A stretch of 64,000 nt of DNA from Erysipelotrichaceae bacterium (GTDB taxonomy: Bacteria > Bacillota_I > Bacilli_A > Erysipelotrichales > Coprobacillaceae): NCBI GenBank assembly GCA_021770925.1, contig JAETPY010000004.1, positions 1 to 64,000 on the forward strand, read 5' to 3'. How positions within the stretch are numbered: the first letter of the stretch is position 1; the number at the start of each line of letters is the position of its first letter. Below are positions 13,199-30,223 of the stretch, in pieces. The position numbers and the translations under genes are program-made. The notes beneath the pieces are model-generated. The model had not been told where the DNA came from. It worked only from the letters and a program-made list of their open reading frames with translations, and ran no database searches.

Positions 13199-13333
13199 TC
13201 TTACTACATTATTTTAAATAAAACAATTATCTAGATTTATCAATCTCTTTATTAATCATGTATAATTTTATATTTTAAATTAATATTTATCGCTACATAT
13301 ATTAATTTTCACTGAAACATTAATTATTTTAGA

Positions 13334-13433
13334 ACAATTCCTCATTAGATAAGGTGCAACTATTACGAAAATAACATCTAAGAAACGCCAGATTGATAAT
13401 AATGTGACAATTCCTCATTAGATAAGGTGCAAC
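13334..13433 (-). CRISPR. Minimal CRISPR array: two repeats, one 46-bp spacer
   Basis: Two identical 27-base copies lie at 13334-13360 and 13407-13433, 73 bases apart. Plus-strand key parts are ACAATTCC at the start and AAGGTGCAAC at the end. On the minus strand each copy begins GTTGCACCTT and ends GGAATTGT. Type III repeats of this style usually end in ...ATTGAAAC (the crRNA 5' handle); here the next bases are TCT and CAC, so the handle end is degenerate or the repeat is unusually short. It sits about 270 bases downstream of cas6 in the direction of transcription. The orientation is inferred from that position and from the GTTGC start. Confidence 0.8.
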
Positions 13434-13704
13434 AACTTATATTTACTAGCTGTTTCTTATATTCTACTACAAATTTACCTATTTTTAAATATTTTACGTG
13501 TATTTTTGCGGTCAATCTCAAAATTAACAATTTGTTTATAACCATTGTGTATCATAGTGTTTGAGCATTTTTTTATATTTTAATAAATCCGTTGAAAAGA
13601 TTGACTGCATTTTAAGCAAATATCAGGTTGTTTTTTAATATTTTTTAATTATAAAATTACTCAAAGTGTATGATCCATAAGGGGTTTAGATTGACCGCAA
13701 AATA
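13434..13704 (-). promoter_or_regulatory. Leader-like AT-rich region between cas6 and the array
   Basis: The region has no open frame. It is AT-rich, lies next to the array on the cas side, and contains an inverted-repeat structure listed separately. A leader function, meaning array promoter and spacer integration site, is inferred from position. Confidence 0.5.
13504..13702. repeat. Long inverted repeat with an internal third copy of its end motif
   Basis: TTTTGCGGTCAATCT at 13504-13518 is exactly inverted at 13688-13702, abutting the cas6 stop. A third, imperfect copy, AGATTGACTGCA, lies at 13598-13609. Inside the arms a weaker inverted pair is seen, TATCATAGTGTTTGAG near 13548-13565 against the complement of CTCAAAGTGTATGATC near 13662-13677. 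The element could be a MITE-like insertion, a long RNA hairpin, or repeated protein-binding sites in the leader. Confidence 0.7.
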
Positions 13705-14436
13705 TTACTCTACAATCTCAAACATACCAAATCCTTGGGAAGTTTTTTCTCCTAAACCAATATAATATAAAAATTCTAAATATTCTTTTTTTCCTTGTAA
13801 CATATATATACCATGCCAGGCTGTTATATACGTATTTTTATAATTAGTTACATATTTATCTTTTGCGCTAATACTTATTAATTTAATTTTAATATTATCA
13901 GGAACTATTCCATAATATGCTTCATATTTCTTTTTAAACAAATTATTTATCCTATCTAAAAAATCTTTTTCTAAAGGATTAAAATAGTGAGTATGTTTTT
14001 TATTTTCTTCAAGAATAGTTTCTCTTACTACTATTGGTGATAAAAGCCTTATTTTTATTTGTTCTTTGTTATTGTAGAGAAATACTTGATATTTATTTAA
14101 AATTATAGTTTGGTTTTGAAGCTTGAAATTAGTGTATTTATTTAAAATATTTAAAAGATGATAATCAAATTTGGTATCTATACCTGCAATGTCTAAAATA
14201 AGTGTATTTTCAAATGTTATTTCATGATTTTTTATTATTTGTTTAGGTGAATATAGTTTGCTAAATGTAAATAATTTATACTTCTTTGTTTTTCCATAAC
14301 CGATGTTGTGAAGAAACTGGGCATATTCTTTATTTTCTTTAGCGAATAAAAGATAGATAAATCTTTGAATATCTTCATGATAATTTAGTTTTAATTTTAA
14401 TGGTTTATTTAGCTTAAAATATAATTTATATCTCAT
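13705..14436 (-). CDS. cas6: CRISPR repeat endoribonuclease Cas6
   Basis: The 243-residue RAMP-fold protein has an N-terminal ferredoxin-like half (about 1-120) and a C-terminal half ending GLGEKTSQGFGMFEIVE, the glycine-rich loop that marks Cas6. It cuts pre-crRNA within repeats to make the crRNA 5' handle. A histidine in the N-terminal part (about residue 20 or 43) could be catalytic but cannot be assigned with certainty. It is the last cas gene, 10 bases after cas2. Unlike some RT-Cas1 systems, Cas6 is a separate protein rather than fused to RT-Cas1. Confidence 0.9.
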   Translation of the reverse strand: MRYKLYFKLNKPLKLKLNYHEDIQRFIYLLFAKENKEYAQFLHNIGYGKTKKYKLFTFSKLYSPKQIIKNHEITFENTLILDIAGIDTKFDYHLLNILNKYTNFKLQNQTIILNKYQVFLYNNKEQIKIRLLSPIVVRETILEENKKHTHYFNPLEKDFLDRINNLFKKKYEAYYGIVPDNIKIKLISISAKDKYVTNYKNTYITAWHGIYMLQGKKEYLEFLYYIGLGEKTSQGFGMFEIVE

Positions 14437-14446
14437 ACAATTCCTT

Positions 14447-14707
14447 TCATATTATATTTGTATTTTTCTTTGTCATTCCTATTTGTTCCTTAGAAATATA
14501 TTTTAATGATTCTAATTCATAAAAACAGATACTATCATAACTAACATCAATAACTTTATCTAAATCTTTTTTCAATTTATTTAACTTACTTTCTGTAATA
14601 TAACCTTCAAATACTGAATTTTGAACTGCAAACAAGTATTTCTTAAATACTTTTCTAACTTTACCTACTCTTTTATGATGGACATCATATACTGCAATAA
14701 TATACAT
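14447..14707 (-). CDS. cas2: CRISPR adaptation protein Cas2
   Basis: The 86-residue protein starts MYIIAVYDVHHKRVGKVRKV, with the conserved Asp after the first beta strand and the basic helix of the Cas2 ferredoxin fold; VFEGYITESKL matches the middle of the family. It dimerises and bridges two Cas1 dimers during spacer integration. It starts 5 bases after the RT-Cas1 stop, so the two products are co-produced. Confidence 0.92.
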   Translation of the reverse strand: MYIIAVYDVHHKRVGKVRKVFKKYLFAVQNSVFEGYITESKLNKLKKDLDKVIDVSYDSICFYELESLKYISKEQIGMTKKNTNII

Positions 14708-14712
14708 AATAA

Positions 14713-16608
14713 TTACATCCTATATTTAAATGGTTCATATTCTTCATTGTATTTGAAATATCTTAAAAGTTTTAATACTTCCTGTTGTAATATTTCTTGA
14801 TAACTTGCTTTTTTATTATTTATTGTTATTGTACTGTTAAGTTTTTTATTTAGCTGTTCAATAAAGATATATTTGCCTTCTTTATTGAGAAATACACCAT
14901 TATTTCTTTTTTCAAAATGAACTTTAGCATCAATAATTCTTTTATTTATTAATGAAAATATTACTTTATCAACAAGAACAGGTTTAATTATTTCTGAGAT
15001 ATCAAGATTTAGATTTTCATATCTCCGTGTTGCTGAATGTAAATAAGAAATTCTGATATCTAATTTTGTTTTATATATTTCATTAGCTATTTTTTGATAT
15101 ATTAAAGTATTCCCAAAACTAATCATTGCATTGAGTGCATCTTTTGGTGGTCTTCTAGTTCTTTTAGTGAATTTAAATTCTTGATTATTGAGAATTATAT
15201 TATAACTACTGTAATATAATTCTCTCATCCTTGCTTCTTGTAATAATAATATTTCTAATGTATTAGCTGTTTTCATTTCTTGTTTACATATCTTTAAATC
15301 ATCAATTATTTTATCTAACTGAATATCATCATTACGTTTATTATAATATTTCAGATTTGTAATAATATTTGCAGTTCCACTATCAATAATTTTTTTAGCT
15401 AATTCTAATCTTTTTGATTTATCAATATAATTTTCAACTTGTTTTATTAAAATTGAAGCTGATTTGTGATGATTGACAGGGATAAAAGAACCAATATAAT
15501 AATCATATTGATCAAATAATGAAACTTTTATATTATTTTGATTTAAAGTATTAAAAAAGTTACTAGAAAAGATTATTTGTGAATATATATTAATATGTTC
15601 TGTTACTTCTGTTGGAATTTCAACTTTTTGATTTTCGTTTTCAAATAAAATTGAATAATCTTTTTTAGTAAGAATTCCATCATTAATAATATGATATTCA
15701 TTATCTTCTTTCCTTATTGCTGATTTATGCCAATAGTTATATTTAACTTTAGTTTCTTGTTTATTCTTCTTAGCTTTAACAATATTATCTTCTTTAATAA
15801 AATTGTATCCTAACATTTGTTTTGTTGAAAAATGAGTAATTGATGTTTTATTTTGATTTATTTCTAATTTATATTTATCTTTTAAACATCTAGATATATT
15901 ATTTATTAAGGTTACACCTTCGTCTTTATTAGTAATAAAAATATAAATATTATCACAGTAGCGAATATAGTTATATTTGATATATTGTTTATCTAAATTC
16001 ATTAAATAAAGATTACTAATTACTGGACTTATTGAAGAACCAGTAATTAGTCCTTTATTTTTTCTTTTAATTTTTCCATCTTTTTGAATCAGACAGCTTT
16101 GGTATTTCATAATTAAAGATACTAAAACTTTATCATCAAGTACATCAAATAATATCTTTGATAAAAGACCATGATCTATATTCTCAAAATATTTTTTAAT
16201 ATCTATTTCAACAATATATTCATGACCTTCCTCAATTAATTCTATTCCTTTTCTAATTACGTCTATCGTCCCTTTTCCTTTACGAAAACTATAATTATTA
16301 TCAATTAATAAACAATCTAATTTATCTTGTAATATTAATGATATTGCTTTTTGAATAAAGTTATCAATAATAGTAAACTTATATATCTCCCTTACCTTTC
16401 CTTTTTTAGAAAGCAGTTCATATATCTGAACAATATTTGGTTCATATGTACCTAAAATAAGCTGATTTTCAATATCATTCCAATTAAGAATTAGATATTC
16501 TTTCAACTGTGATAACATTATTCCATCTATTCCACTAGAATAATTTCGCTTCATTAACTCTAAATAAGCTTTTTCTAAATTATTTTTACTTAATATTTCT
16601 TTTAACAT
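14713..16608 (-). CDS. cas1: Reverse transcriptase-Cas1 fusion (RT box reads YCDN)
   Basis: This is a 631-residue fusion from the ATG at 16608, which lies just after the upstream stop; an in-frame ATG at 16641 would overlap that gene. Residues about 10-290 are a group II intron-type RT: motif A is EIDIKKYFENIDH (Asp about 136), followed by the GSSISPVISN block, then YCDN at about 217-220 where YADD is normal. Residues about 330-631 are Cas1 with all metal ligands: Glu about 458 (LLQEARMRELYY), His about 524 (SYLHSATRR) and Glu about 539 (LDISEIIKPVLVDK). RT-Cas1 proteins let type III systems take spacers from RNA. The second catalytic Asp of the RT is replaced by Asn (codon 15949-15951), so cDNA synthesis may be impaired; the Cas1 part looks active. 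Confidence 0.92.
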   Translation of the reverse strand: MLKEILSKNNLEKAYLELMKRNYSSGIDGIMLSQLKEYLILNWNDIENQLILGTYEPNIVQIYELLSKKGKVREIYKFTIIDNFIQKAISLILQDKLDCLLIDNNYSFRKGKGTIDVIRKGIELIEEGHEYIVEIDIKKYFENIDHGLLSKILFDVLDDKVLVSLIMKYQSCLIQKDGKIKRKNKGLITGSSISPVISNLYLMNLDKQYIKYNYIRYCDNIYIFITNKDEGVTLINNISRCLKDKYKLEINQNKTSITHFSTKQMLGYNFIKEDNIVKAKKNKQETKVKYNYWHKSAIRKEDNEYHIINDGILTKKDYSILFENENQKVEIPTEVTEHINIYSQIIFSSNFFNTLNQNNIKVSLFDQYDYYIGSFIPVNHHKSASILIKQVENYIDKSKRLELAKKIIDSGTANIITNLKYYNKRNDDIQLDKIIDDLKICKQEMKTANTLEILLLQEARMRELYYSSYNIILNNQEFKFTKRTRRPPKDALNAMISFGNTLIYQKIANEIYKTKLDIRISYLHSATRRYENLNLDISEIIKPVLVDKVIFSLINKRIIDAKVHFEKRNNGVFLNKEGKYIFIEQLNKKLNSTITINNKKASYQEILQQEVLKLLRYFKYNEEYEPFKYRM

Positions 16609-16609
16609 G

Positions 16610-18781
16610 CTACCTATTATATTTTCGTTTAATCCAGCCATAAATACACCCGCTAATTATAATTGTGATAATAGTTATTCCTAATGTAAAACCATATTTA
16701 CAAATATCTATTTCAAATATTTTGTCAATTAAACCATTTGCACTACGATCAATTGAAAGTGTATCATAAATATATGTTAAAATTACTATCAATAATGAAA
16801 TAGATGCAAAAATTAAAGCATACATATTGAATTTATTATCCTGATTAGCATTAGTTCCAGTATATAAACCATCTAATTGTTCTTTTAACTCTCTTTTTTC
16901 TTCATCTATATACATTGCTTTTGTAAGCATATTATAAATTTCTACCCCTTGTTCTTGTGGAGTTACTTCAAAAAACAATAATTGATTTTGAAAAGAAATA
17001 TATTTTTCTTGTAAATTCAATAAATTGTTAATTGTCACCTGCTTAATCTTTTTATTATCTTTTTCTAAACCATTTGTAAGTAACGTTGCAAAGTTTTGAA
17101 ATAAAATTATTGAAGCCCTTTGCACCAAAGTAAGAATAGCCATATCAACATATAATGTTAAAAAATAATCTATTAAGTATGGTGGGCAATCATTTGTAGC
17201 AATAGCAACAAATGAATGATGGGTAATACCATAAACAGTTCCCCAATCGATCCATCTTGTATATAAATCACGCTCTAAAAGCCTTTGTACATCATGTATT
17301 GATTGACAGCTGCTGTCTCCAGGATCAATATATATAATTGAATACAAATTTTTAGCCGCTTTGTCATTGATTTGATATTCATATTTATTGTTAGCATAGA
17401 ACTTTTTATCATCAGATAATACAAATTGACCATCTTTTTCTACGTATTTAGTATTGATGCTATTTATAATCTGACTAGAACGGATGAAACTGCATACAAA
17501 CATTCGATCATCTAAAACTGGTTCAATGAAATATATGTCTTCTTTACACTTTTGATAATTTGAAGTTAGTATATTATCATGAGACTTTGGATAAGTTAAT
17601 AAATCTTTAATTGGATTAAGAATCTTTGTAAAACTTATATTACTGGTTTGTTCCTTTTTAATATCATCATATAGTGAACATAAATCATCAAATAAAGGAT
17701 TTAGTTTACTATCATTACCAAAATCAATTTTCCAATAAAATGAGCATGGATTAGATTTCATTGTTAAATTTGGTGCTGAAATTCTTCTTACATATTCGTT
17801 AATTAATTTTATATCTTTAATATCATTATAATCATGATTTTCTAATTCGAAAATCATTACTGCTACATCTGAATTAAATACTTTTAATCGAATTGCATTT
17901 AATATTAAAGAAAATTCTTTTGGTTTACTTTCATCCCCTATCCCAATTTGAATAATTAATTTAGCTTTTTCATGAGTTTCTTTTGGGCTAAATGAATAGT
18001 TAGTAACTATTGGATTGTTTTCTAAATCACAATCATCATCAAAACCATAAATAGCTTGTAAAGGTGCACTATTAAAATATTGCATAGTATTATAATGCAG
18101 CTTAAATTCTTCTAATTTCTTATCTTCATCATCATTAACATATTTATAATTACTTAAATCTTTACTTTTTAAATTTGTATTTTCCCAATATTCAGTATTT
18201 AAAATTCCTTTTTTATCAGCTGTTCCATTAAGAAACTCACTTGTTTTATATTTTTTAAAATAATTTTTCTTATCTTTTTTTAAAGGATTAAAAACAATTC
18301 TAAATGGAAATAAAAATGTATGATAGCTATATACCTCATTATTATTTTTTTTGCTGTTATTACTAGAAACTTCTTTTACACAATACCATTTTGATATTTT
18401 ACCTTCTAAAAATCTTCCTCTTAAATCTATTTCTTCTCTTTTATTTTTATTAATAGATATATTGCATAATTCATTAATATGTGTAAGTTTATCATTTACT
18501 TTAGTAATACTTCCCTTTTTAAATAAACTATCACTAAACGTATTAATCGTATTTAATTTTTCATGATAATATTTGGTAATCTCATTTAAATAATCCTCAT
18601 AACTTTTTACATCGTTTACATATATATTATATTCTATATTGTCTTCACAAATTAAAATATTACATATTTTCTCTAGACTATCATCATCTTTAATAAACGA
18701 TTTATTCTCCCATGTATCATTTTCTATATAATGAAAATAAATATTTATTTTTTCAGTAAATTCTATATACACTTTCTTCAT
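16610..18781 (-). CDS. CorA-like membrane protein, candidate type III CRISPR effector
   Basis: The 723-residue protein has a large soluble part with no motif I can name. A conserved-looking core near residues 520-570 (WGTVYGITHHSFVAI, then LTLVQRASIILF) precedes a long amphipathic helix. Two membrane helices at the C-terminus (about 653-674 and 697-716) flank a short loop, and the tail is basic (WIKRKYNR). The order long helix, two helices and basic tail resembles CorA channels, but the GMN motif is absent. CorA-like proteins are known partners of type III-B systems that signal with cyclic oligoadenylate or SAM-AMP. Its place inside the operon, 8 bases after cmr6 and adjoining RT-cas1, supports an effector role. 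The ligand is unknown. Confidence 0.65.
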   Translation of the reverse strand: MKKVYIEFTEKINIYFHYIENDTWENKSFIKDDDSLEKICNILICEDNIEYNIYVNDVKSYEDYLNEITKYYHEKLNTINTFSDSLFKKGSITKVNDKLTHINELCNISINKNKREEIDLRGRFLEGKISKWYCVKEVSSNNSKKNNNEVYSYHTFLFPFRIVFNPLKKDKKNYFKKYKTSEFLNGTADKKGILNTEYWENTNLKSKDLSNYKYVNDDEDKKLEEFKLHYNTMQYFNSAPLQAIYGFDDDCDLENNPIVTNYSFSPKETHEKAKLIIQIGIGDESKPKEFSLILNAIRLKVFNSDVAVMIFELENHDYNDIKDIKLINEYVRRISAPNLTMKSNPCSFYWKIDFGNDSKLNPLFDDLCSLYDDIKKEQTSNISFTKILNPIKDLLTYPKSHDNILTSNYQKCKEDIYFIEPVLDDRMFVCSFIRSSQIINSINTKYVEKDGQFVLSDDKKFYANNKYEYQINDKAAKNLYSIIYIDPGDSSCQSIHDVQRLLERDLYTRWIDWGTVYGITHHSFVAIATNDCPPYLIDYFLTLYVDMAILTLVQRASIILFQNFATLLTNGLEKDNKKIKQVTINNLLNLQEKYISFQNQLLFFEVTPQEQGVEIYNMLTKAMYIDEEKRELKEQLDGLYTGTNANQDNKFNMYALIFASISLLIVILTYIYDTLSIDRSANGLIDKIFEIDICKYGFTLGITIITIIISGCIYGWIKRKYNR

Positions 18782-18789
18782 AAAATCAC

Positions 18790-19617
18790 CTATTCTACTA
18801 AATATCCATAACCAACATTTGTTTTAGCGCCAATGCCAAAATCTTTTATAATCTCTTTAAACAAATTTATTTTATCATTCTTTTTTATAATATGCGTTTT
18901 TTTACCATCAACTTCTATTATAGAATCATTTAAGATAAAATTAAATTTTATCTTAGTACCTGGAGCTAGTCGTAACATTGTAATAACATTAACTTCACCT
19001 AAAGTTAAAAGTCTTTCATTTTGATGATGGGGTGCTAAATGATCTAATTTTAAGATTTTCTTGTTATTATAATCACTAACAAATGAATCAATAAATATAT
19101 CAGTCCCTGGAGTATCATTATCATTACCAAAAATAGCTGTTTTAATTTTCTTTACAAGTTCTTCTTTTTTATTATTATCAATATCTTTAATATTTAGCTT
19201 ATCTAAAATGTAATCATGATATTTAAAAACACTTGCAAGTTTACCTTTTAATGAAGAACCTGGAATATATGGCAATCCTGTTACATAATCAAAATTGAAC
19301 CCTAGCGATATTTCACCTTTGATATTAGCCTGATGACTATTACCAATTCCAATTAATAAACCTGGATATTCAACTGCCATTTCAAATGATAAAAGTATGT
19401 CTTGAAGAGGTTGTAAAAATGATGACTCATGATATTGGTGATTTGTAATATATATATTATTTTCATCTATTATATCTGTTATTTTTTTGTTTCCAATCTT
19501 AATCTTTTCACTAATTTTTTCTTCATTATTACTTTTTTGAATAGATTTATTATCTATATTTTTCAAAAAATCATAATATGTTTTATTGAAAAAATAGTTC
19601 ATGTTTGAAATAGTCAT
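18790..19617 (-). CDS. cmr6: Type III-B RAMP protein Cmr6 (Cas7 group)
   Basis: The protein carries the Cmr6 signature: LLIGIGNSHQANIKGEISLG, then TGLPYIPGSSLKGKLASVF near residues 115-150, where the GSSLKG loop is typical of Cas7-like subunits. The C-terminus FGIGAKTNVGYGYLVE is the glycine-rich loop. It caps the Cmr backbone at the crRNA 3' side. The ATG at 19617, one base after the cmr5 stop (TAAaATG), is preferred over in-frame starts further upstream because it is correctly spaced from AAGGGA. This gives 275 residues. Confidence 0.88.
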   Translation of the reverse strand: MTISNMNYFFNKTYYDFLKNIDNKSIQKSNNEEKISEKIKIGNKKITDIIDENNIYITNHQYHESSFLQPLQDILLSFEMAVEYPGLLIGIGNSHQANIKGEISLGFNFDYVTGLPYIPGSSLKGKLASVFKYHDYILDKLNIKDIDNNKKEELVKKIKTAIFGNDNDTPGTDIFIDSFVSDYNNKKILKLDHLAPHHQNERLLTLGEVNVITMLRLAPGTKIKFNFILNDSIIEVDGKKTHIIKKNDKINLFKEIIKDFGIGAKTNVGYGYLVE

Positions 19618-19618
19618 T

Positions 19619-20035
19619 TTAATCATTCCCTTCATTTTTAGAAGTTTCGTTCTTAGATATTTCTTCTTCAAACAGATTAAGTGTCAGCTTAATTGCAATC
19701 GCAGCATCTAATACTTCTGGCTTTATATTTCCATTATCTTTTGCATACTCAAATAAAGCATATTTTTTTATTTCATTATATTTTTCTTCACTACCTTTAT
19801 CTTTTTTTATAATATAATAAATCAGTTTCATTAATTCTTGACGCTTTACATCGGAACTGCCCTTATCACTAAAAAAAGCAATCGCTGATAACAAACTTCC
19901 CATACTAACAGCCGCCCCAAAGGAAGTGATTTGTGCTTGATAATTTCCTTGTAATTTATCATCTTTAATAAGTTCAGAATTTTTTACAGCTTCATATGCA
20001 ATCGATAAATATCTATTTATTCTACTTTTTGCCAT
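19619..20035 (-). CDS. cmr5: Type III-B small subunit Cmr5 (Cas11)
   Basis: The 138-residue helical protein (MAKSRINRYLSIAYEAVKN) contains the QAQITSFGAAVSMGSLLSAIAFF stretch in two parts, near residues 35-60, typical of Cmr5. It forms the inner filament of the complex. The start at 20035 is inside the end of cmr4 and is preceded by GGTGGTGAT; earlier ATGs are too close to that site. It has an acidic, Asn-rich tail. Confidence 0.85.
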   Translation of the reverse strand: MAKSRINRYLSIAYEAVKNSELIKDDKLQGNYQAQITSFGAAVSMGSLLSAIAFFSDKGSSDVKRQELMKLIYYIIKKDKGSEEKYNEIKKYALFEYAKDNGNIKPEVLDAAIAIKLTLNLFEEEISKNETSKNEGND

Positions 20036-20849
20036 TATCATCACCACCTTCTTTAAATACTGTTACTTTAGTAAGTCCATAACCAATTGAGGCATTACCA
20101 CCAAACTGAACAATTTTACCATTAACAGCATTATTGAATGTATTAAGTAATTCATCATCTTCTTCACAACTTACACAAACAAAGAAAAGGGAATGATGAG
20201 GAACATATTCTTCATACCAGATATTTTGAGAAATACCATCTTTTAAAACATTTCTTGCAACAACTGGTAATGAAATATCTTTTATTTTATCATGAGGCAT
20301 AATAACGAGGTTATCTGCTGTATTAGAAGTAATTTTCTTAAATAATTTTTTGATTTCATTATCTTCTAAATTATCTTCAATTTTTATTTCTTCTACTATA
20401 ATTTCATTATTAGCAGCTTTATAAGATTTATCTTCGTCTAAGTTATCTATATTTAAACTGTATTTCACTTTCATAACTTCACACATTTCAATAAATCTAT
20501 CCAACATCTTTTTAGTCGTAACCAATGAATATGGTGCATTACCTTTTTCATTACGCATTGTCAAACCTAAACATTCTCCACTATAAAATTTTAATTTACC
20601 AGGTTTCTTTTTTTCATCTTTGTTTTGTTCAATTGGTTCGGAACCAAAAATATCTATTTCAATTTTTTTATCAATTTTATTATTTTGGATGAATTCTCTA
20701 AAAGCTCCTTTTATTCCTGATGAATTAATAATTGGATAATTAGTAAGTGGATCTTTTTCCACCTCATTATCAATAATATTATAATTAATATCTCCATTTC
20801 CTACATGTAAATTAGTAATTGGTTCTAATATGTATACAATATTCTTCAT
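20022..20849 (-). CDS. cmr4: Type III-B backbone protein Cmr4 (Cas7)
   Basis: The 275-residue protein starts MKNIVYILEPITNLHVGNGD, and NYPIINSSGIKGAFREFI near residue 40 is the classical Cmr4 block. The C-terminal IVQFGGNASIGYGLTKV is the glycine-rich loop. Cmr4 repeats along the crRNA and supplies the Asp that cuts target RNA every six bases; Asp 20 or nearby (GNGD) is the candidate. Its ATG overlaps the cmr3 stop by one base. Confidence 0.9.
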   Translation of the reverse strand: MKNIVYILEPITNLHVGNGDINYNIIDNEVEKDPLTNYPIINSSGIKGAFREFIQNNKIDKKIEIDIFGSEPIEQNKDEKKKPGKLKFYSGECLGLTMRNEKGNAPYSLVTTKKMLDRFIEMCEVMKVKYSLNIDNLDEDKSYKAANNEIIVEEIKIEDNLEDNEIKKLFKKITSNTADNLVIMPHDKIKDISLPVVARNVLKDGISQNIWYEEYVPHHSLFFVCVSCEEDDELLNTFNNAVNGKIVQFGGNASIGYGLTKVTVFKEGGDDNGKK

Positions 20850-21955
20850 TACTTATCTCCTCCTATTTTTATAATTTGATTAAAACCGATATTTTTTAAA
20901 TTTTTATTTTCAAACAATTGTTCAAAATCATTCTTTTTTGCTTCATTTACAAAGAAAACACTACCAGCACGAATAAAATTATATAATTCACTTTGCTCTA
21001 ACTTATGATAAAAATTATCTTTATCATAATTAGTTTTTAAACATCTAAAATTTCTTGTTTCTGACCAAATCAGATCACAACATATATTTAATCTATTTGC
21101 ATCTTCACAAGCTAAATCTGATAAAGCATAATAATAGACATTATCATCAAGCTTTAAGGCCTCTTTTATTTTTTCTTCCAACTTATTATTTTCTTGATAC
21201 ATAGTTAATTTAAATGCTGATTTTTCTGCACCCAGATAAACAACATCTGTTATTTCACCATTGAAATTTAAATTTGTATCATCAAGCATCACATAAAAAC
21301 ATAACTTATAATTTTTAAAAAACTTGTATTCTTTTTTAAAGAAACCATCTTCATCTAGAGATCGATTAATTCCTACTTTTACATGTGATTCAAAAATTTT
21401 ACTATTTTTAATAATTTCTAAATCATCTAAAAGTACGTATGAATCTCGATAATCATCTTCATTTTTTAAAACTACTTCATCAATCAATTTAAAATTTCTT
21501 TCACTACTGCCATCCATTATTTTAATCTTGGCAGTATCTTTCTTTAATCCTCTTAACTTAAGTTTATTATTATCAAAACTACCATTGAAAGGTGTTTTGA
21601 CCAATATCTGTCTTGTTTCATTTTTTAAAAACATCGGACTAATCTTTTTAATAACACCATATTCTAAATTATCATTACATGACATTATAAAACTACTTCT
21701 ACCAATAAATTCTTTTTGCTTCTCAATTTGTTGGGCAGTTAATCCCTGATTACTAAAATTTTTGTTTAACAAATTCATTCTTTTTAAAACAAAATATCTC
21801 ATCATCCCTAATAATGTTGTTTGAGTTGGCAAATTTTCTGATATTACAAAATAATTATTATAAATTCCCTTATTATTCCTAGCAAATCCAAAACTTCTTT
21901 CATTTCCCAGGAAATAATCCTCAATTGGCTCTAATTCTACACAATACTCACTCAT
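20849..21955 (-). CDS. cmr3: Type III-B protein Cmr3 (Cas5 group)
   Basis: The 368-residue protein begins YCVELEPIEDYFLGNERSFG, and the following NLPTQTTLLGMMRYFVLKRM matches the P-S-P-T-x-x-G-x-L-R block of Cmr3. It binds the crRNA 5' handle and contacts Cas10. The gene overlaps both neighbours by one base (TAATG), showing tight coupling of Cas10, Cmr3 and Cmr4 synthesis. Confidence 0.85.
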   Translation of the reverse strand: MSEYCVELEPIEDYFLGNERSFGFARNNKGIYNNYFVISENLPTQTTLLGMMRYFVLKRMNLLNKNFSNQGLTAQQIEKQKEFIGRSSFIMSCNDNLEYGVIKKISPMFLKNETRQILVKTPFNGSFDNNKLKLRGLKKDTAKIKIMDGSSERNFKLIDEVVLKNEDDYRDSYVLLDDLEIIKNSKIFESHVKVGINRSLDEDGFFKKEYKFFKNYKLCFYVMLDDTNLNFNGEITDVVYLGAEKSAFKLTMYQENNKLEEKIKEALKLDDNVYYYALSDLACEDANRLNICCDLIWSETRNFRCLKTNYDKDNFYHKLEQSELYNFIRAGSVFFVNEAKKNDFEQLFENKNLKNIGFNQIIKIGGDK

Positions 21956-23520
21956 TACTCCTGTCCCCTTTTTTCAACTAAAAATTTAGCAAATCTTAGT
22001 ATACTCGATAATTCAGTATTTTTATCTTTATAAGAACCGTTTTCAATTATTGATTTAAAACGTTTATTTTCTTTATCACTTTTAATTTTAATAAACAAAT
22101 TAGTAATATCTTTAATAAATTCCTGATAGTTTTCCTGCATCGGATTACTGTACATATTAATAAAGAAATTTTCTATTTCCTTTTCATTTTTATTATTAGC
22201 TGCTATATCATATAAATCACGATAATTATCTATTAAATAAATTACAGAATTCGTACTATCCTTTATTTGTTTAGATTTCTCATTAGAAATATAATACTTA
22301 TTTATAAAATTTTTAAATTCTTTCAAAGTTTCTGTTTCATTACCAAAATTTAAGAATACTGATAAGCCACTTGCTTTAGTCAAATTGATTGCAATACTAT
22401 CTTTTTTCTTATTATCATTATCTAGTTTCTTTGCTTTATTTAACATTTCTCTAGCTTGATTAAATGATTCATATAAAGGAAATTTCTTATGATTAATTGC
22501 AATTCCAAAAGATATACTAGCTCCTTTATGTTCCAGTTTTTCAAATTTTTGTCTAATCTTTTCACATAAATCCAAAATATTTTCATCATTATTTTTACTT
22601 ATTATTGGAGCTAAAAACAATAAATCGTCACCACCAGCATATATTGTTACCCCACCATATTCCTTAATCAAATCAGCTGATTTAGTCGTATAATCAACAC
22701 AGCTTTTAGAAAATTCTTTTACCTCTTTAATGTCATTACCCATATCATTAAATAATTTTGTCATTCCATCACCATCAGCTTGTACTATTGCAAGATAATT
22801 AGATATTTTATAATCTTTTTTGTTTTCTATTACAGCAATATCATCTACTGTTTTAATAGTATTTTTGTAAATAACCTGTGGTTTAACTTGAGTATTATTT
22901 TCTTTATCATCATTTAAAGTTTTAAAGAATTTTTTGATATATATATTTTTAGCATCTGTTCTATCTTTATCATCAACCTTATCACTTTCTTTAATTTTTA
23001 TTCCATTAAATAAAGTTAAAAAATAGTTTTCTTTTTCCTCATATACATAAGAATTAAACTGCTCAACATTATCTAATATTTCACTTATCTCATTCATAAT
23101 ATTATTAATATTCTTTATTTTGATACAATGAATATTAATATATTCATTAACAAATTTTTCAACTTCATTTTTATCAAAACTTCTTGTTAAAAATTGATTA
23201 CCATCTATTCTAATAAAAGTTCTATATAATAAATCTCTTAACTTTTCTTTTGTATCCTTTATAATCTTATTCATATCTAAATCATTATCAGCAATAAAAA
23301 TAATATGATCAGGATAAGACCCTACTTCTTCACTATCTTTTTCTTCAAAACTTGGTATTAATACATCTCCATTATTCCGTTTTATTTCTACAATTAATTG
23401 TTTAGCGATATATGAAAATATATAGCTGGCAAGCCATAACCCCCCAGGTGTTGAAGTCATACATAATGTTTTAACTATTGGTCCGATTGTTATGCCATAA
23501 TACATTTCATTATCTTTCAT
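21955..23520 (-). CDS. cas10: Type III-B large subunit Cas10 (Cmr2), cyclase-type without HD domain
   Basis: The 521-residue protein begins at the first palm-like part: GITIGPIVKTLCMTSTPGG, then LWLASYIFSYIAK (about residues 10-40), as in Cmr2 after its HD domain. No N-terminal HD nuclease domain is present and none is encoded next door. The second palm has QADGDGMTKLF (about 247-257) and GGDD at about 296-299, with YAGGDDLLFLAP intact. It should therefore make a nucleotide second messenger on target-RNA binding, but probably not cut single-stranded DNA. I saw no Cys-rich zinc finger. It is shorter than usual Cmr2 (700-900 residues). Confidence 0.92.
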   Translation of the reverse strand: MKDNEMYYGITIGPIVKTLCMTSTPGGLWLASYIFSYIAKQLIVEIKRNNGDVLIPSFEEKDSEEVGSYPDHIIFIADNDLDMNKIIKDTKEKLRDLLYRTFIRIDGNQFLTRSFDKNEVEKFVNEYINIHCIKIKNINNIMNEISEILDNVEQFNSYVYEEKENYFLTLFNGIKIKESDKVDDKDRTDAKNIYIKKFFKTLNDDKENNTQVKPQVIYKNTIKTVDDIAVIENKKDYKISNYLAIVQADGDGMTKLFNDMGNDIKEVKEFSKSCVDYTTKSADLIKEYGGVTIYAGGDDLLFLAPIISKNNDENILDLCEKIRQKFEKLEHKGASISFGIAINHKKFPLYESFNQAREMLNKAKKLDNDNKKKDSIAINLTKASGLSVFLNFGNETETLKEFKNFINKYYISNEKSKQIKDSTNSVIYLIDNYRDLYDIAANNKNEKEIENFFINMYSNPMQENYQEFIKDITNLFIKIKSDKENKRFKSIIENGSYKDKNTELSSILRFAKFLVEKRGQE

Positions 23521-24925
23521 TTTGATCCTCCTCCAATTTAGTTAAAAAATATTCCCCATCATAATTTATACCTGATTTATTTTTTACATCTAACATATAT
23601 AAAACTTTATTTAATCCAGCAATTTCAAAAAAACTTTCAAAATCAAATTTTTCTGTATCAGGTAATTGTGCTGTAAATTGTATTTTACGTTCTTTTTTTC
23701 TTTTCTTTTCATCTTTATTATATCTTTCGTTAAAAACGATTTTTGGATTAGCATTTTGTAAACTTATTAGAGCATTATTATTTATGATAATATATATTTC
23801 TTTATAATTTTCAGAAACATGGTAATGAAGCGGTGAAGGAAATCTTGATATTTCTTCTTTACCAATTTTACCTTTAACATCAAAGTCTTTCAAAAAAGCT
23901 TTTTTCTCTTTTCCATTTTTATCACGAGGAATAATATCAAATTTATCACGATTTTTTTCGATACATAAACTAAATTGATATAATTGTGCAAATCCTAATA
24001 ATCCTCTTGTATAATAAATTTTATTATCATTTAATGGTTTTTTAAAATCACAATCATCGATAAGTTTTCCATTATCTTTATGTTTCAAATTATTAATATT
24101 ATATCCACTTAATTCTAGCTTTTGTTTCATAGCCTTTTTTTCATTTATAATATTATATCTATTTTGTTTAAAATATTTTTTCATAATTACTGATGGAATA
24201 TATTCATTATTTTGTCTAAGTCCGCTTTTAAGAAAGCGATTATACTCAGCTATTGCATTTAAAGCAACTGCATAATCTGTATTAATCTTATCGTTTTTTT
24301 CTTTATCTAATTCAAGTTTATATACTAAAATATTTTCACTTTTAAAATGATTTATTGCTTTAAGTAAATTATTTTCAATATTATCCTTGTAATCTTGATT
24401 GTTTATTTTACTGACCCTAAAATTTCCATATCCTTTGCTTTGCTGTAAACCAAACGCTGTCAAATCAATTAAAATCGGCAATAATTCCTTAATCCTATTG
24501 GCCAACTCTTGATTAAAGCATGTTATATCAATAATAATTTTAGAATAAAAAGAAGATTTATATTTATATTTATCTTTATTTAAAATATAAACTGCATTCC
24601 CATATCTGAAATCCCTATTCACTTTATTCTCTGCCTTTATTCTCATTTTATAATTCAGTGCATGATATTGGTGTACTTGATCTTGATCAACCAGCCAAGC
24701 TTTATCTTTTAAATCCTTTACAGTCTGTTTCAACATTTTAGCTTCTGAATCTATTTTTTGTTTAGTCCACTTTTTTTCCTCTTTTTCATAAGCAAGCCAA
24801 GATAAAATAAAACGATCTAACTTAGGTTTTAATTCAGTAGCTCTGATTGTTGCTTCATCATCGTCTTGAAAATGAATCATTGGTGTGACTTGCTTTAAAC
24901 TAAATTTTAACTTTATCACATTCAT
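23510..24925 (-). CDS. cmr1: Type III-B RAMP protein, probable Cmr1
   Basis: The 471-residue protein begins LKFSLKQVTPMIHFQ, followed by TIRATELKPKLDRFI, resembling the T-P-x-I and R-x-S/T-x-x-K-x-x-L-R blocks of Cmr1. The GLQQSKGYGNFRVSK loop near residue 168 is a RAMP glycine-rich loop. Cmr1 sits at the 3' end of the crRNA complex. It is the first gene of the operon, behind a strong AGGAGGG site, and overlaps cas10 by 11 bases. The assignment rests on these blocks and gene order; Cmr1 is the least certain of the six Cmr subunits. Confidence 0.75.
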   Translation of the reverse strand: MNVIKLKFSLKQVTPMIHFQDDDEATIRATELKPKLDRFILSWLAYEKEEKKWTKQKIDSEAKMLKQTVKDLKDKAWLVDQDQVHQYHALNYKMRIKAENKVNRDFRYGNAVYILNKDKYKYKSSFYSKIIIDITCFNQELANRIKELLPILIDLTAFGLQQSKGYGNFRVSKINNQDYKDNIENNLLKAINHFKSENILVYKLELDKEKNDKINTDYAVALNAIAEYNRFLKSGLRQNNEYIPSVIMKKYFKQNRYNIINEKKAMKQKLELSGYNINNLKHKDNGKLIDDCDFKKPLNDNKIYYTRGLLGFAQLYQFSLCIEKNRDKFDIIPRDKNGKEKKAFLKDFDVKGKIGKEEISRFPSPLHYHVSENYKEIYIIINNNALISLQNANPKIVFNERYNKDEKKRKKERKIQFTAQLPDTEKFDFESFFEIAGLNKVLYMLDVKNKSGINYDGEYFLTKLEEDQNER

Positions 24926-29758: not shown

Positions 29759-30223
29759 CTATATTAAATTGCAGTCTTTTAATATTTTTTCAACAACTTC
29801 CCATACCATCAAAGAAGGATTTTCCCTATAAAAACTATAACCTTTATATCTTTGCAACTGATATCCATTAGCCTGATTAGATTGCATAATACGTTTTGAT
29901 CGTTCTATAGCTTTTTTTACATTATCAATGCTTAACTGTTCCAAACAGCGCTTAAAATGATCATAATACTTATAGTCATCCATGCTTAGAAAATGTTTGT
30001 TATAGGCTCTATTGATTGAATTGATATATTGCTTCCTATCAGTTTTTGAACCATTACAATCCATTTTATGTAATATGATCCACAAATCAAATGTAAAGTT
30101 ACTATAGCCAAATTTATAAACTATGTTCTTTCCAATAGCAGAAGCCTTTTTCAAATTATCGATAGTCTGCTTAAATTGCTGAACATGAAATTCATCATTA
30201 CTCTGGCTATATAATTCCATCAT
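29759..30223 (-). CDS. RloB-like protein, C-terminal half
   Basis: The 154-residue frame from the first ATG contains YSNFTFDLWIILHKMDC near residue 40, like the S-N-P-x-F-E-L-W-x-L-L-H motif of RloB, and ENPSLMVWEVVEKIL at the end. RloB genes accompany restriction and abortive-infection systems. The usual N-terminal half, with the VVFDxDDF-type motif, is absent. The frame is open 40 codons further upstream to 30343, where an AAGGAGG site stands seven bases before an ATC codon. Either the start is a rare ATC, a former ATG has mutated, or translation starts at 30223 without a clear ribosome site. Confidence 0.55.
   Translation of the reverse strand: MMELYSQSNDEFHVQQFKQTIDNLKKASAIGKNIVYKFGYSNFTFDLWIILHKMDCNGSKTDRKQYINSINRAYNKHFLSMDDYKYYDHFKRCLEQLSIDNVKKAIERSKRIMQSNQANGYQLQRYKGYSFYRENPSLMVWEVVEKILKDCNLI

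What the first reader, a model, noticed from the sequence alone, without database searches (positions are those of the whole stretch)
13334..24925. Complete type III-B operon joining HD-less Cas10, CorA-like protein and RT-Cas1
All ten genes are in one strand with overlaps or gaps of at most about 10 bases. The GGDD of Cas10 is intact while the HD nuclease is missing, and no Csm6, Can or Csx1 nuclease is present. The only candidate effector is a membrane protein. This implies immunity by second messenger acting on the membrane, combined with RNA-capable spacer acquisition, a combination I do not know as described in this lineage. No ring nuclease, NrN-type or SAM-AMP lyase off-switch was seen nearby.
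Basis: partly seen in the sequence, partly recalled or inferred. Interest (0 to 1): 0.85.

Follow-up and report, generated by a model that had tools for sequence, protein, structure and literature searches.

The report
CRISPR membrane-alarm operon lacking known off-switch
A gut bacterium carries a known kind of CRISPR immune system that probably raises a chemical alarm (SAM-AMP) acting on the cell membrane, but no recognised enzyme to clear that alarm was found with it, and its reverse transcriptase has an altered active site.

Summary
Ten minus-strand genes (13705-24925) encode Cmr1, Cas10, Cmr3-6, a CorA-like membrane protein, RT-Cas1, Cas2 and Cas6, followed by a leader and a two-repeat array. 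Cas10 has GGDD and no HD domain. The genome is a Thomasclavelia species. The combination is known in other lineages: type III-B CorA loci with fused RT-Cas1 are in the Fig. 1 legend of PMC10600005, and one lies on an Arcobacter plasmid. What is new: (1) Cas10 carries both residues that mark SAM-AMP synthases (D71, E153 = B. fragilis D70, E151), so SAM-AMP is the likely messenger. (2) No NrN, DEDD or lyase degrader is in the operon; NrN and T3-type lyase profiles find none in the 89%-complete genome; five of eight III-B corA loci compared lack one. (3) The RT has YCDN for YADD and TG for QG in three of three Thomasclavelia copies, yet dN/dS is about 0.15, so 'RNA-capable acquisition' cannot be assumed. 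(4) CorA has a fast-evolving N-terminal extension where two plasmid CorAs carry fused NrN. Verdict: a new variant of a known kind, useful because SAM-AMP degradation was required for immunity in the reconstituted B. fragilis system.

The parts
23510..24925 (-). cmr1 (471 aa)
   Evidence: PADLOC Cmr1 3.7e-57; no Pfam or NCBIfam match
21955..23520 (-). cas10/cmr2 (521 aa), no HD domain, GGDD intact
   Evidence: PF22335 2.8e-30, PF12469 from residue 8; TIGR02577 above cut-off; GGDD 296-299
23308..23310 (-). Cas10 D71, equivalent to B. fragilis Cas10 D70 (SAM acceptor site)
   Evidence: invariant in 8 of 8 rows; numbering checked on PDB 9lq5_B
23062..23064 (-). Cas10 E153, equivalent to B. fragilis Cas10 E151
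   Evidence: invariant in 8 of 8 rows
20849..21955 (-). cmr3 (368 aa)
   Evidence: PADLOC Cmr3 9e-31; PF09700 above cut-off
20022..20849 (-). cmr4 (275 aa)
   Evidence: TIGR02580 3.4e-37, above cut-off
19619..20047 (-). cmr5 (142 aa)
   Evidence: PADLOC Cmr5 5.4e-46; PF09701 above cut-off
18790..19671 (-). cmr6 (293 aa by the first start; the true start is probably later, which would remove the 53-nt overlap)
   Evidence: TIGR01898 8.7e-26, above cut-off
16610..18781 (-). corA: CRISPR CorA-like membrane effector (723 aa), hydrophobic segments near the C terminus at 653-671 and 699-717 (a weaker one at 535-561)
   Evidence: PADLOC CorA 6.2e-71 over residues 148-720; hydropathy
18341..18781 (-). 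CorA N-terminal extension (residues 1-147), no family found, fast-evolving
   Evidence: no PADLOC match, no Pfam match above cut-off; dN/dS 0.57 against 0.14 for the core; best of five models pLDDT 76.6, the others 43-57; weak fold matches only
14713..16641 (-). RT-cas1 fusion (642 aa)
   Evidence: PF00078 1.7e-24 at 79-280 and PF01867 1.7e-75 at 317-598
15949..15960 (-). RT motif C, YCDN (residues 228-231) in place of YADD
   Evidence: 3 of 3 Thomasclavelia copies; Arcobacter YADD, Pseudanabaena YGDD
16039..16047 (-). RT motif B, ITG (residues 199-201) where Arcobacter and Pseudanabaena have QG
14447..14707 (-). cas2 (86 aa)
   Evidence: PF09827 8.6e-20
13705..14436 (-). cas6 (243 aa)
   Evidence: PF01881 1.1e-32; TIGR01877 above cut-off
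13434..13704 (-). leader between cas6 and the array
   Evidence: similar to the leader of strain VE202-01 (part of an 82% identical stretch)
13404..13433 (-). first CRISPR repeat (30 nt)
13361..13403 (-). single spacer (43 nt); no match in 50,697 phage records (E 0.5), and no exact 26-mer match in IMG/VR
13331..13360 (-). terminal CRISPR repeat, last bases degenerate

Best explanation
This is a type III-B CRISPR-Cas system of the CorA-1 / SAM-AMP signalling group. The Cmr complex with crRNA binds foreign RNA; Cas10, which has no HD nuclease, joins ATP to S-adenosyl methionine to make SAM-AMP; SAM-AMP opens or destabilises the CorA-like membrane protein, and the cell stops growing or dies before the phage spreads. 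Shown here from sequence: gene content, absence of HD, GGDD, the SAM-type acceptor residues D71/E153, the conserved RR and DD pairs of CorA, purifying selection. Inferred from the B. fragilis work: SAM-AMP synthesis, CorA gating, membrane damage. It differs from the described systems in three ways: no recognised SAM-AMP degrader in the operon; a CorA with an N-terminal extension seen only in Thomasclavelia here; and an RT-Cas1 whose RT active site is altered but under selection. I think the signal is cleared by an enzyme encoded elsewhere or of an unrecognised type, and that the adaptation module still integrates spacers, with the RT's own chemistry uncertain.
For: Complete cmr1-6, cas6, RT-cas1, cas2, corA. 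Cas10 D71 and E153 invariant in 8 of 8 Cas10s from corA loci, two of which (Eggerthia, Peptoniphilus) are near-copies; the alignment to PDB 9lq5_B puts them on D70 and E151, and the same chain has its GGDD aspartates at 328/329, the numbers given for B. fragilis Cas10 in PMC10600005. The solved cOA-type Cmr2 (3w2v; P. furiosus by recall) has N in the D70 column ('LPNKAL'; that part of the alignment is weak, i-Evalue 0.64), in agreement with the paper's N300. CorA RR pair kept in 8 of 9 and DD pair in 7 of 9 aligned CorAs, fitting the R152/R153 and D219/D220 pairs needed for immunity (correspondence inferred from order, B. fragilis CorA was not at hand). No HD, HEPN or effector nuclease match in the operon proteins. 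dN/dS against T. saccharogumia: Cas10 0.22, CorA core 0.14, RT 0.15, Cas1 0.07, Cas6 0.05.
Against: No SAM-AMP degrader was found, although immunity in the reconstituted B. fragilis system needed one (PMC10600005, PMC12255297). The array holds a single spacer with no known target. In the related strain VE202-01 corA is split by a frameshift. The AlphaFold model of CorA is weak (pLDDT 62.9) and matches solved CorA channels only poorly (Foldseek E 0.41; Z 3.5-4.5). Cas2 has a weak match to a CARF3 model (E 0.002, 15.8 bits), which I take for chance. I found no biochemistry for this lineage.
Confidence: 0.77

Rival explanations
1. Cas10 makes a cyclic oligoadenylate (or another product) and this CorA branch senses that, as has been proposed for the Actinomyces CorA clade and left open for III-D CorA. 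The lack of a SAM-AMP degrader would then need no explanation.
For: CorA clades without degraders have been read this way (PMC11229360, section read; PMC12669027, passages); PMC12669027 adds that exceptions to the messenger-degrader pairing might point to Cas10s with different messengers. Five of eight III-B corA loci compared here lack a recognised degrader.
Against: D71/E153, the residues linked to SAM over ATP, are kept in all 8 Cas10s aligned, including those next to fused NrN. No ring nuclease or Csm6-2 match among the ten operon proteins; the only CARF match is a weak one on Cas2.
Confidence: 0.12
2. The SAM-AMP degrader is encoded in trans: a housekeeping phosphodiesterase, for example the DEDD-SWIM exonuclease next to the second CRISPR array on contig C6, or an unrecognised enzyme.
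For: The genome has a 263-aa DEDD exonuclease with a SWIM zinc motif beside a second CRISPR array. In a Clostridia MAG a DEDD-like protein follows cmr6 in the corA operon (PADLOC DEDDh 1e-4; Pfam does not recognise it as RNase_T).
Against: Full-length homologues of the DEDD-SWIM protein occur in 7 of 8 other Thomasclavelia genomes, of which only 2 have corA, so it is not tied to this system. The DEDDh profile rings in all 6 genomes searched and 13 of 14 control genomes, so a match to it says little either way. The MAG's DEDD-like protein has no relative in this genome.
Confidence: 0.3
3. The N-terminal extension of CorA is a fused module that replaces NrN: it degrades, sequesters or gates SAM-AMP.
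For: It sits where the Arcobacter and Haliscomenobacter CorAs carry a fused NrN. Its best model (pLDDT 76.6) is beta-beta-beta-alpha-beta followed by helices, and the weak fold matches include several ribonuclease-H-like proteins, the superfold of DEDD enzymes. E10, just past the first strand, is the same in all three copies.
Against: dN/dS 0.57 and 60% identity to T. saccharogumia against 0.14 and 86% for the core, which is unlike an enzyme; no acidic residue within the first strand is shared by the three copies; four of five models are poor; best Foldseek E 0.05, best Z 5.5, and the top Z rows align mainly its helices. The Eggerthia CorA has neither the extension nor a degrader.
Confidence: 0.1
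4. A decaying or idle locus: one spacer, an RT without its canonical active site, a frameshifted effector in a sister strain.
For: Two-repeat array with degenerate last repeat; YCDN and TG motifs; corA split in VE202-01; corA there is a 47%-identical allele while cas10 stays 92% identical to T. saccharogumia.
Against: All ten frames are open in the window; the seven genes tested are under purifying selection (dN/dS 0.05-0.25 against T. saccharogumia); the leader is conserved and VE202-01 has nine repeats with eight different spacers, so spacers were acquired in that lineage at some time.
Confidence: 0.13

Closest known systems
Bacteroides fragilis type III-B Cmr / CorA / NrN SAM-AMP system (PMC10600005, PMC11346440; passages read)
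   Same: Cas10 with GGDD and D70/E151 and no N-terminal HD (9lq5_B aligns from residue 2), cmr1-6, CorA effector, cas6, adaptation genes in one locus
   Different: B. fragilis has NrN and NYN in the locus; neither was found here, CorA has a 147-aa N-terminal extension, and the RT motif is YCDN
Clostridium botulinum type III-B CorA / SAM-AMP lyase system (PMC10600005, PMC12255297; passages read)
   Same: type III-B, CorA effector, Bacillota host
   Different: lyase gene beside corA in place of NrN; none found here (outside the window tested only by a Pfam profile that phage T3's SAM lyase matches)
Arcobacter sp. AZ-2023 plasmid p82_LEO_62 type III-B locus (L020)
   Same: 453-aa Cas10 with both SAM-site residues, CorA, cmr4-6, RT-Cas1, Cas2 on one strand (cmr1 and cmr3 positions annotated as hypothetical)
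   Different: NrN fused to the N terminus of CorA; RT keeps YADD and QG; corA stands before the cmr genes; WYL and NERD genes directly before corA and a DUF1887 CARF gene about 6 kb away
Eggerthia catenaformis / Peptoniphilus mikwangii type III-B corA loci (L011/L019, L018)
   Same: III-B with corA and no recognised degrader
   Different: no RT-cas1, cas2 or cas6 among the listed ORFs; corA without the N-terminal extension (542 aa)

Membership tests
Type III-B CorA-1 / SAM-AMP signalling systems | Complete Cmr effector module (Cas10, Cmr1, 3-6) | tested here: met
Type III-B CorA-1 / SAM-AMP signalling systems | Cas10 with GGDD cyclase motif and acidic acceptor-site residues (B. fragilis D70, E151) | tested here: met
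   D71, E153, GGDD 296-299
Type III-B CorA-1 / SAM-AMP signalling systems | CRISPR CorA-like membrane effector in the locus | tested here: met
   PADLOC CorA 6.2e-71; RR and DD pairs kept; C-terminal hydrophobic segments
Type III-B CorA-1 / SAM-AMP signalling systems | NrN, DEDD or SAM-AMP lyase beside or fused to corA (typical per PMC12669027; 'seem to be obligately associated' per PMC10600005) | tested here: not met
   none in the operon; DHH_CorA profile 0 in this genome, found in both control plasmids; PF23780 0 in this genome; DEDDh only in a 1444-aa frame (PolC by its length) and a genus-wide DEDD-SWIM protein. Because PMC12669027 says 'typically' for the enzymes and calls CorA the signature, I file this as a variant
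Type III-B CorA-1 / SAM-AMP signalling systems | SAM-AMP made on target RNA binding, CorA bound by it | not testable with these tools
   needs biochemistry
RT-Cas1 adaptation modules that take spacers from RNA | RT of the group II intron kind fused to Cas1, with Cas2 | tested here: met
   RVT_1 and Cas1 domains; group II RT model 4.9e-52, below its whole-protein cut-off; cas2 adjacent
RT-Cas1 adaptation modules that take spacers from RNA | Three RT active-site aspartates (motif A D; motif C xDD), as described in PMC8102632 (passages) | tested here: not met
   D147 and D230 present, third is N231 in 3 of 3 Thomasclavelia copies
RT-Cas1 adaptation modules that take spacers from RNA | Cas1 catalytic E, H, E | tested here: met
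   E469, H535, E550 align with the Arcobacter and Pseudanabaena proteins; residue roles recalled
RT-Cas1 adaptation modules that take spacers from RNA | Spacer acquisition from RNA shown | not testable with these tools
   no target found for the window's spacer, three VE202-01 spacer pieces or a stretch with five VE202-01 spacers
cOA-signalling type III systems | CARF/SAVED effector or ring nuclease in the locus | tested here: not met
   none convincing in the ten operon proteins (one weak CARF3 match on Cas2, E 0.002) nor in ten neighbours, whose PADLOC matches were AbiLii, HTH regulators and PDC-M56A

The most novel reading that the evidence does not exclude
Two lineages (Thomasclavelia, and Eggerthia/Peptoniphilus) run SAM-AMP immunity without any of the known degraders: the alarm is terminated by a new class of enzyme or by CorA itself, in Thomasclavelia perhaps through the N-terminal extension that takes the place of the fused NrN. 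In the same operon the RT of RT-Cas1 has swapped its catalytic YxDD/QG for YCDN/TG and does altered or purely structural work in spacer acquisition.
Probability: 0.3. Interest if true: 0.75.

Novelty: new variant of a known kind. Interest (0 to 1): 0.5.

Why it matters
Why immunity through CorA should need an enzyme that destroys its own activator is stated as unsolved in the SAM-AMP papers (PMC10600005, PMC12255297; passages). The 2025 classification (PMC12669027; passages) says that studying exceptions to the pairing of messenger and degrader might lead to new messengers, sensors and nucleases. This operon, its two sister copies and the Eggerthia-type loci are natural III-B exceptions with intact SAM-site residues in Cas10, so the question becomes a direct test: does this CorA work without a degrader, and if not, what supplies it? 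The RT variant gives a second clean test, whether an RT-Cas1 with xDN in motif C still copies RNA.

Tried and rejected
The combination as a general novelty: rejected, because RT-Cas1 with corA in III-B loci is in the Fig. 1 legend of PMC10600005 and was seen on an Arcobacter plasmid; RT-Cas1 in Firmicutes is also in print (clade 12, PMC6013744, passages). A full-text search for RT-Cas1 + CorA + type III-B found only PMC11346440 (passages). Thomasclavelia + CRISPR + type III listed two papers whose titles and abstracts are on other subjects (listing only); Eggerthia catenaformis + CRISPR gave none. I claim only that I found no paper on this operon in that library.

NrN hidden in the N terminus of CorA: rejected. 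The DHH_CorA profile matches the two plasmid CorAs and not this one.

N-terminal extension as a DEDD enzyme: not supported. Best Foldseek E 0.05; best Z 5.5, to residues 158-263 of Campylobacter CorA; for the whole CorA model the best Z is 7.1, to a helix stretch of TrmK. The tool calls such values common. No absence of a fold family is claimed.

DEDD-SWIM exonuclease as the dedicated degrader: rejected as dedicated, because it is in 7 of 8 other Thomasclavelia genomes.

Limits of the degrader search: the genome is 89.4% complete. The Clostridium-type SAM-AMP lyase itself was not available as a query. PF23780, which phage T3's lyase matches at 143 bits, found nothing in the genome; the T3 protein, two NrN domains and the MAG's DEDD protein were run over 1,509 frames of 40 aa or more from the window and seven fetched loci, and only the DEDD protein found itself (the two NrN queries had plasmid controls that rang, the lyase had none). 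The single-protein NrN search had no positive control; one search did. Degraders in comparison loci were looked for by reading ORF lists as well as by these searches.

Spacer targets: none for the window's spacer, for three VE202-01 spacer pieces (exact matches only), or for an array stretch with five VE202-01 spacers. CorA and RT-Cas1 scans of IMG/VR found no relative. Rfam at gathering thresholds: nothing in the window. Promoter-like sites 101 against a shuffle mean of 113, terminator-like 2 against 1.5. A search for SAM-AMP with cryo-EM, Cmr and Cas10 found no paper, so the origin of PDB 9lq5 was not read.

Rows dropped: the Peptoniphilus CorA (L018) was left out of alignment A8 as a 96% copy of the Eggerthia locus. 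Seven of the ten operon genes were used for dN/dS.

Full report
What is there. The minus strand from 24925 to 13705 carries cmr1, cas10, cmr3, cmr4, cmr5, cmr6, corA, RT-cas1, cas2 and cas6. Pfam, PADLOC and NCBIfam together identify all of them, Cmr1 and CorA by PADLOC only. Junctions run from a 10-nt gap to a 53-nt overlap with mechanical starts. G+C is 23.8% in the operon and 30.0% in the window outside it. After cas6 come a leader and two 30-nt repeats around one 43-nt spacer; no other copy of the repeat core was found in the draft genome at up to 3 mismatches.

Whose genome. Both are given as of the window's genus, so the window is a Thomasclavelia species (Erysipelotrichia), species not known.

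Messenger. PMC10600005 (passages read) reports that Cas10s of the CorA-1 cluster keep D70 and E151 near the methionine of SAM, where P. furiosus Cas10 has N300 and R436. In eight Cas10s from corA loci (three Thomasclavelia, Eggerthia, Peptoniphilus, a Clostridia MAG, and the Arcobacter and Haliscomenobacter plasmids) the equivalents of both residues are invariant; the Eggerthia and Peptoniphilus loci are 96% identical and count as one. The profile aligns to PDB 9lq5_B over nearly its whole length; counted on that chain the two columns are D70 and E151 and the GGDD aspartates are D328 and D329, the numbers given for B. fragilis. That 9lq5_B is the B. fragilis protein is my inference from this numbering. 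SAM-AMP is therefore the likely product; it has not been measured.

Effector. CorA matches PADLOC's CRISPR CorA models from residue 148 on. RR (332-333) and DD (424-425) pairs occur in 8 of 9 and 7 of 9 aligned CorAs, in the order of the pairs R152-R153 and D219-D220 whose loss abolishes immunity in B. fragilis. Two hydrophobic segments lie near the C terminus. Residues 1-147 are an extension that, among the nine CorAs aligned, only the three Thomasclavelia proteins have; it is under weak constraint (dN/dS 0.57 against 0.14 for the core). The two plasmid CorAs have an NrN of the DHH_CorA family before their CorA part.

Off-switch. Among eight type III-B corA loci examined, three carry a recognised degrader: NrN fused to CorA in Arcobacter and Haliscomenobacter, and a DEDD-like protein overlapping the end of cmr6 in a Clostridia MAG (L016; PADLOC DEDDh 1e-4; no RNase_T match in Pfam). 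In five none was found: the window, T. saccharogumia, VE202-01, Eggerthia and Peptoniphilus; these are two lineages. Whole-genome searches found no DHH_CorA in this genome or five comparison genomes while finding both plasmid controls, no PF23780 lyase in this genome, and no relative of the MAG's DEDD-like protein in this genome or four others of the set. The broad DEDDh profile rings in all six genomes, as in 13 of 14 controls, so a generic DEDD enzyme acting in trans cannot be excluded. Two further corA genes, in L017 and in the 'phage' record MT836912, have no cmr gene among the ORFs listed near them and were not counted. This breaks the described pairing without showing what takes its place.

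Reverse transcriptase. Motif C is YCDN and motif B ITG in the three Thomasclavelia RT-Cas1 proteins; Arcobacter has YADD and QG, Pseudanabaena YGDD and QG. These five are all the RT-Cas1 proteins compared. dN/dS of the RT part is 0.14-0.15 and of Cas1 0.07, so the domain is kept. In a CRISPR-associated RT the metal was bound by D73, I74 and D154, and mutants of both motif C aspartates were inactive (PMC10415136, passages read); the passages do not give the effect of losing only the second. From recall, negative-strand RNA virus polymerases use GDN, so an active xDN enzyme is possible. Activity is open.

History. The VE202-01 copy lies near the same ATP-grasp gene as the window's, so the locus is probably shared by descent. 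There corA has been replaced over most of its length: 47% identity to T. saccharogumia CorA while cas10 is 92% and RT-cas1 98.9% identical, and the gene is split by a frameshift into 566 and 111 aa. VE202-01 has nine repeats and eight spacers of 35-51 nt, so spacers were acquired in that lineage at some time, whatever the RT does.

Judgement. What it works like: the B. fragilis SAM-AMP / CorA system. Membership: yes for effector and messenger features, with one usual companion, the degrader, tested and not found. It is a new variant of a known kind.

Noticed in passing
L028 (G000 contig C6) 13814-20000: The same genome has a second CRISPR-Cas locus with genes read by eye as cas3, cas4, cas1, cas2 and a three-repeat array (type I-B-like), with a DEDD-SWIM exonuclease just beyond the array; homologues of the exonuclease are in 7 of 8 other Thomasclavelia genomes.
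   Followed up: partly
L010 10360-12482 (VE202-01): corA is a divergent allele (47% to T. saccharogumia) in an otherwise similar operon and is split by a frameshift into 566 and 111 aa; suggests exchange of the effector gene.
   Followed up: partly
L022 (MT836912.1, 'Bacteriophage sp.', human faeces): A CRISPR-type CorA (511 aa) next to a 774-aa protein of unknown family and a TIR-domain protein, no cmr gene seen in the 8.3-kb record: possibly a CorA effector in a non-CRISPR defence setting.
   Followed up: no
L017 9995-12280: A CRISPR-type corA in a Clostridia MAG with a metallo-beta-lactamase-fold hydrolase about 10 bp downstream and no cmr gene seen in the listed ORFs; the hydrolase could be a degrader candidate.
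   Followed up: no
L018 and L011: Peptoniphilus mikwangii and Eggerthia catenaformis share the type III-B corA locus at 96% DNA identity over about 10.8 kb, suggesting recent transfer or contamination.
   Followed up: partly
L016 11608-12180: A 190-aa protein of unknown family, coiled-coil by appearance, sits between corA and cmr1 in the Clostridia MAG locus.
   Followed up: no
window 29759-30223: RloB-like fragment (154 aa; weak AbiLii match), perhaps a remnant of another defence gene upstream of the operon; a RloB-like gene beside an AAA ATPase, read by eye, lies downstream of the operon in VE202-01 (L010 17060-18980).
   Followed up: no
L010 about 19050-19422: A second stretch similar to the window's array leader, on the opposite strand to the first, suggesting a second array in VE202-01.
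   Followed up: no
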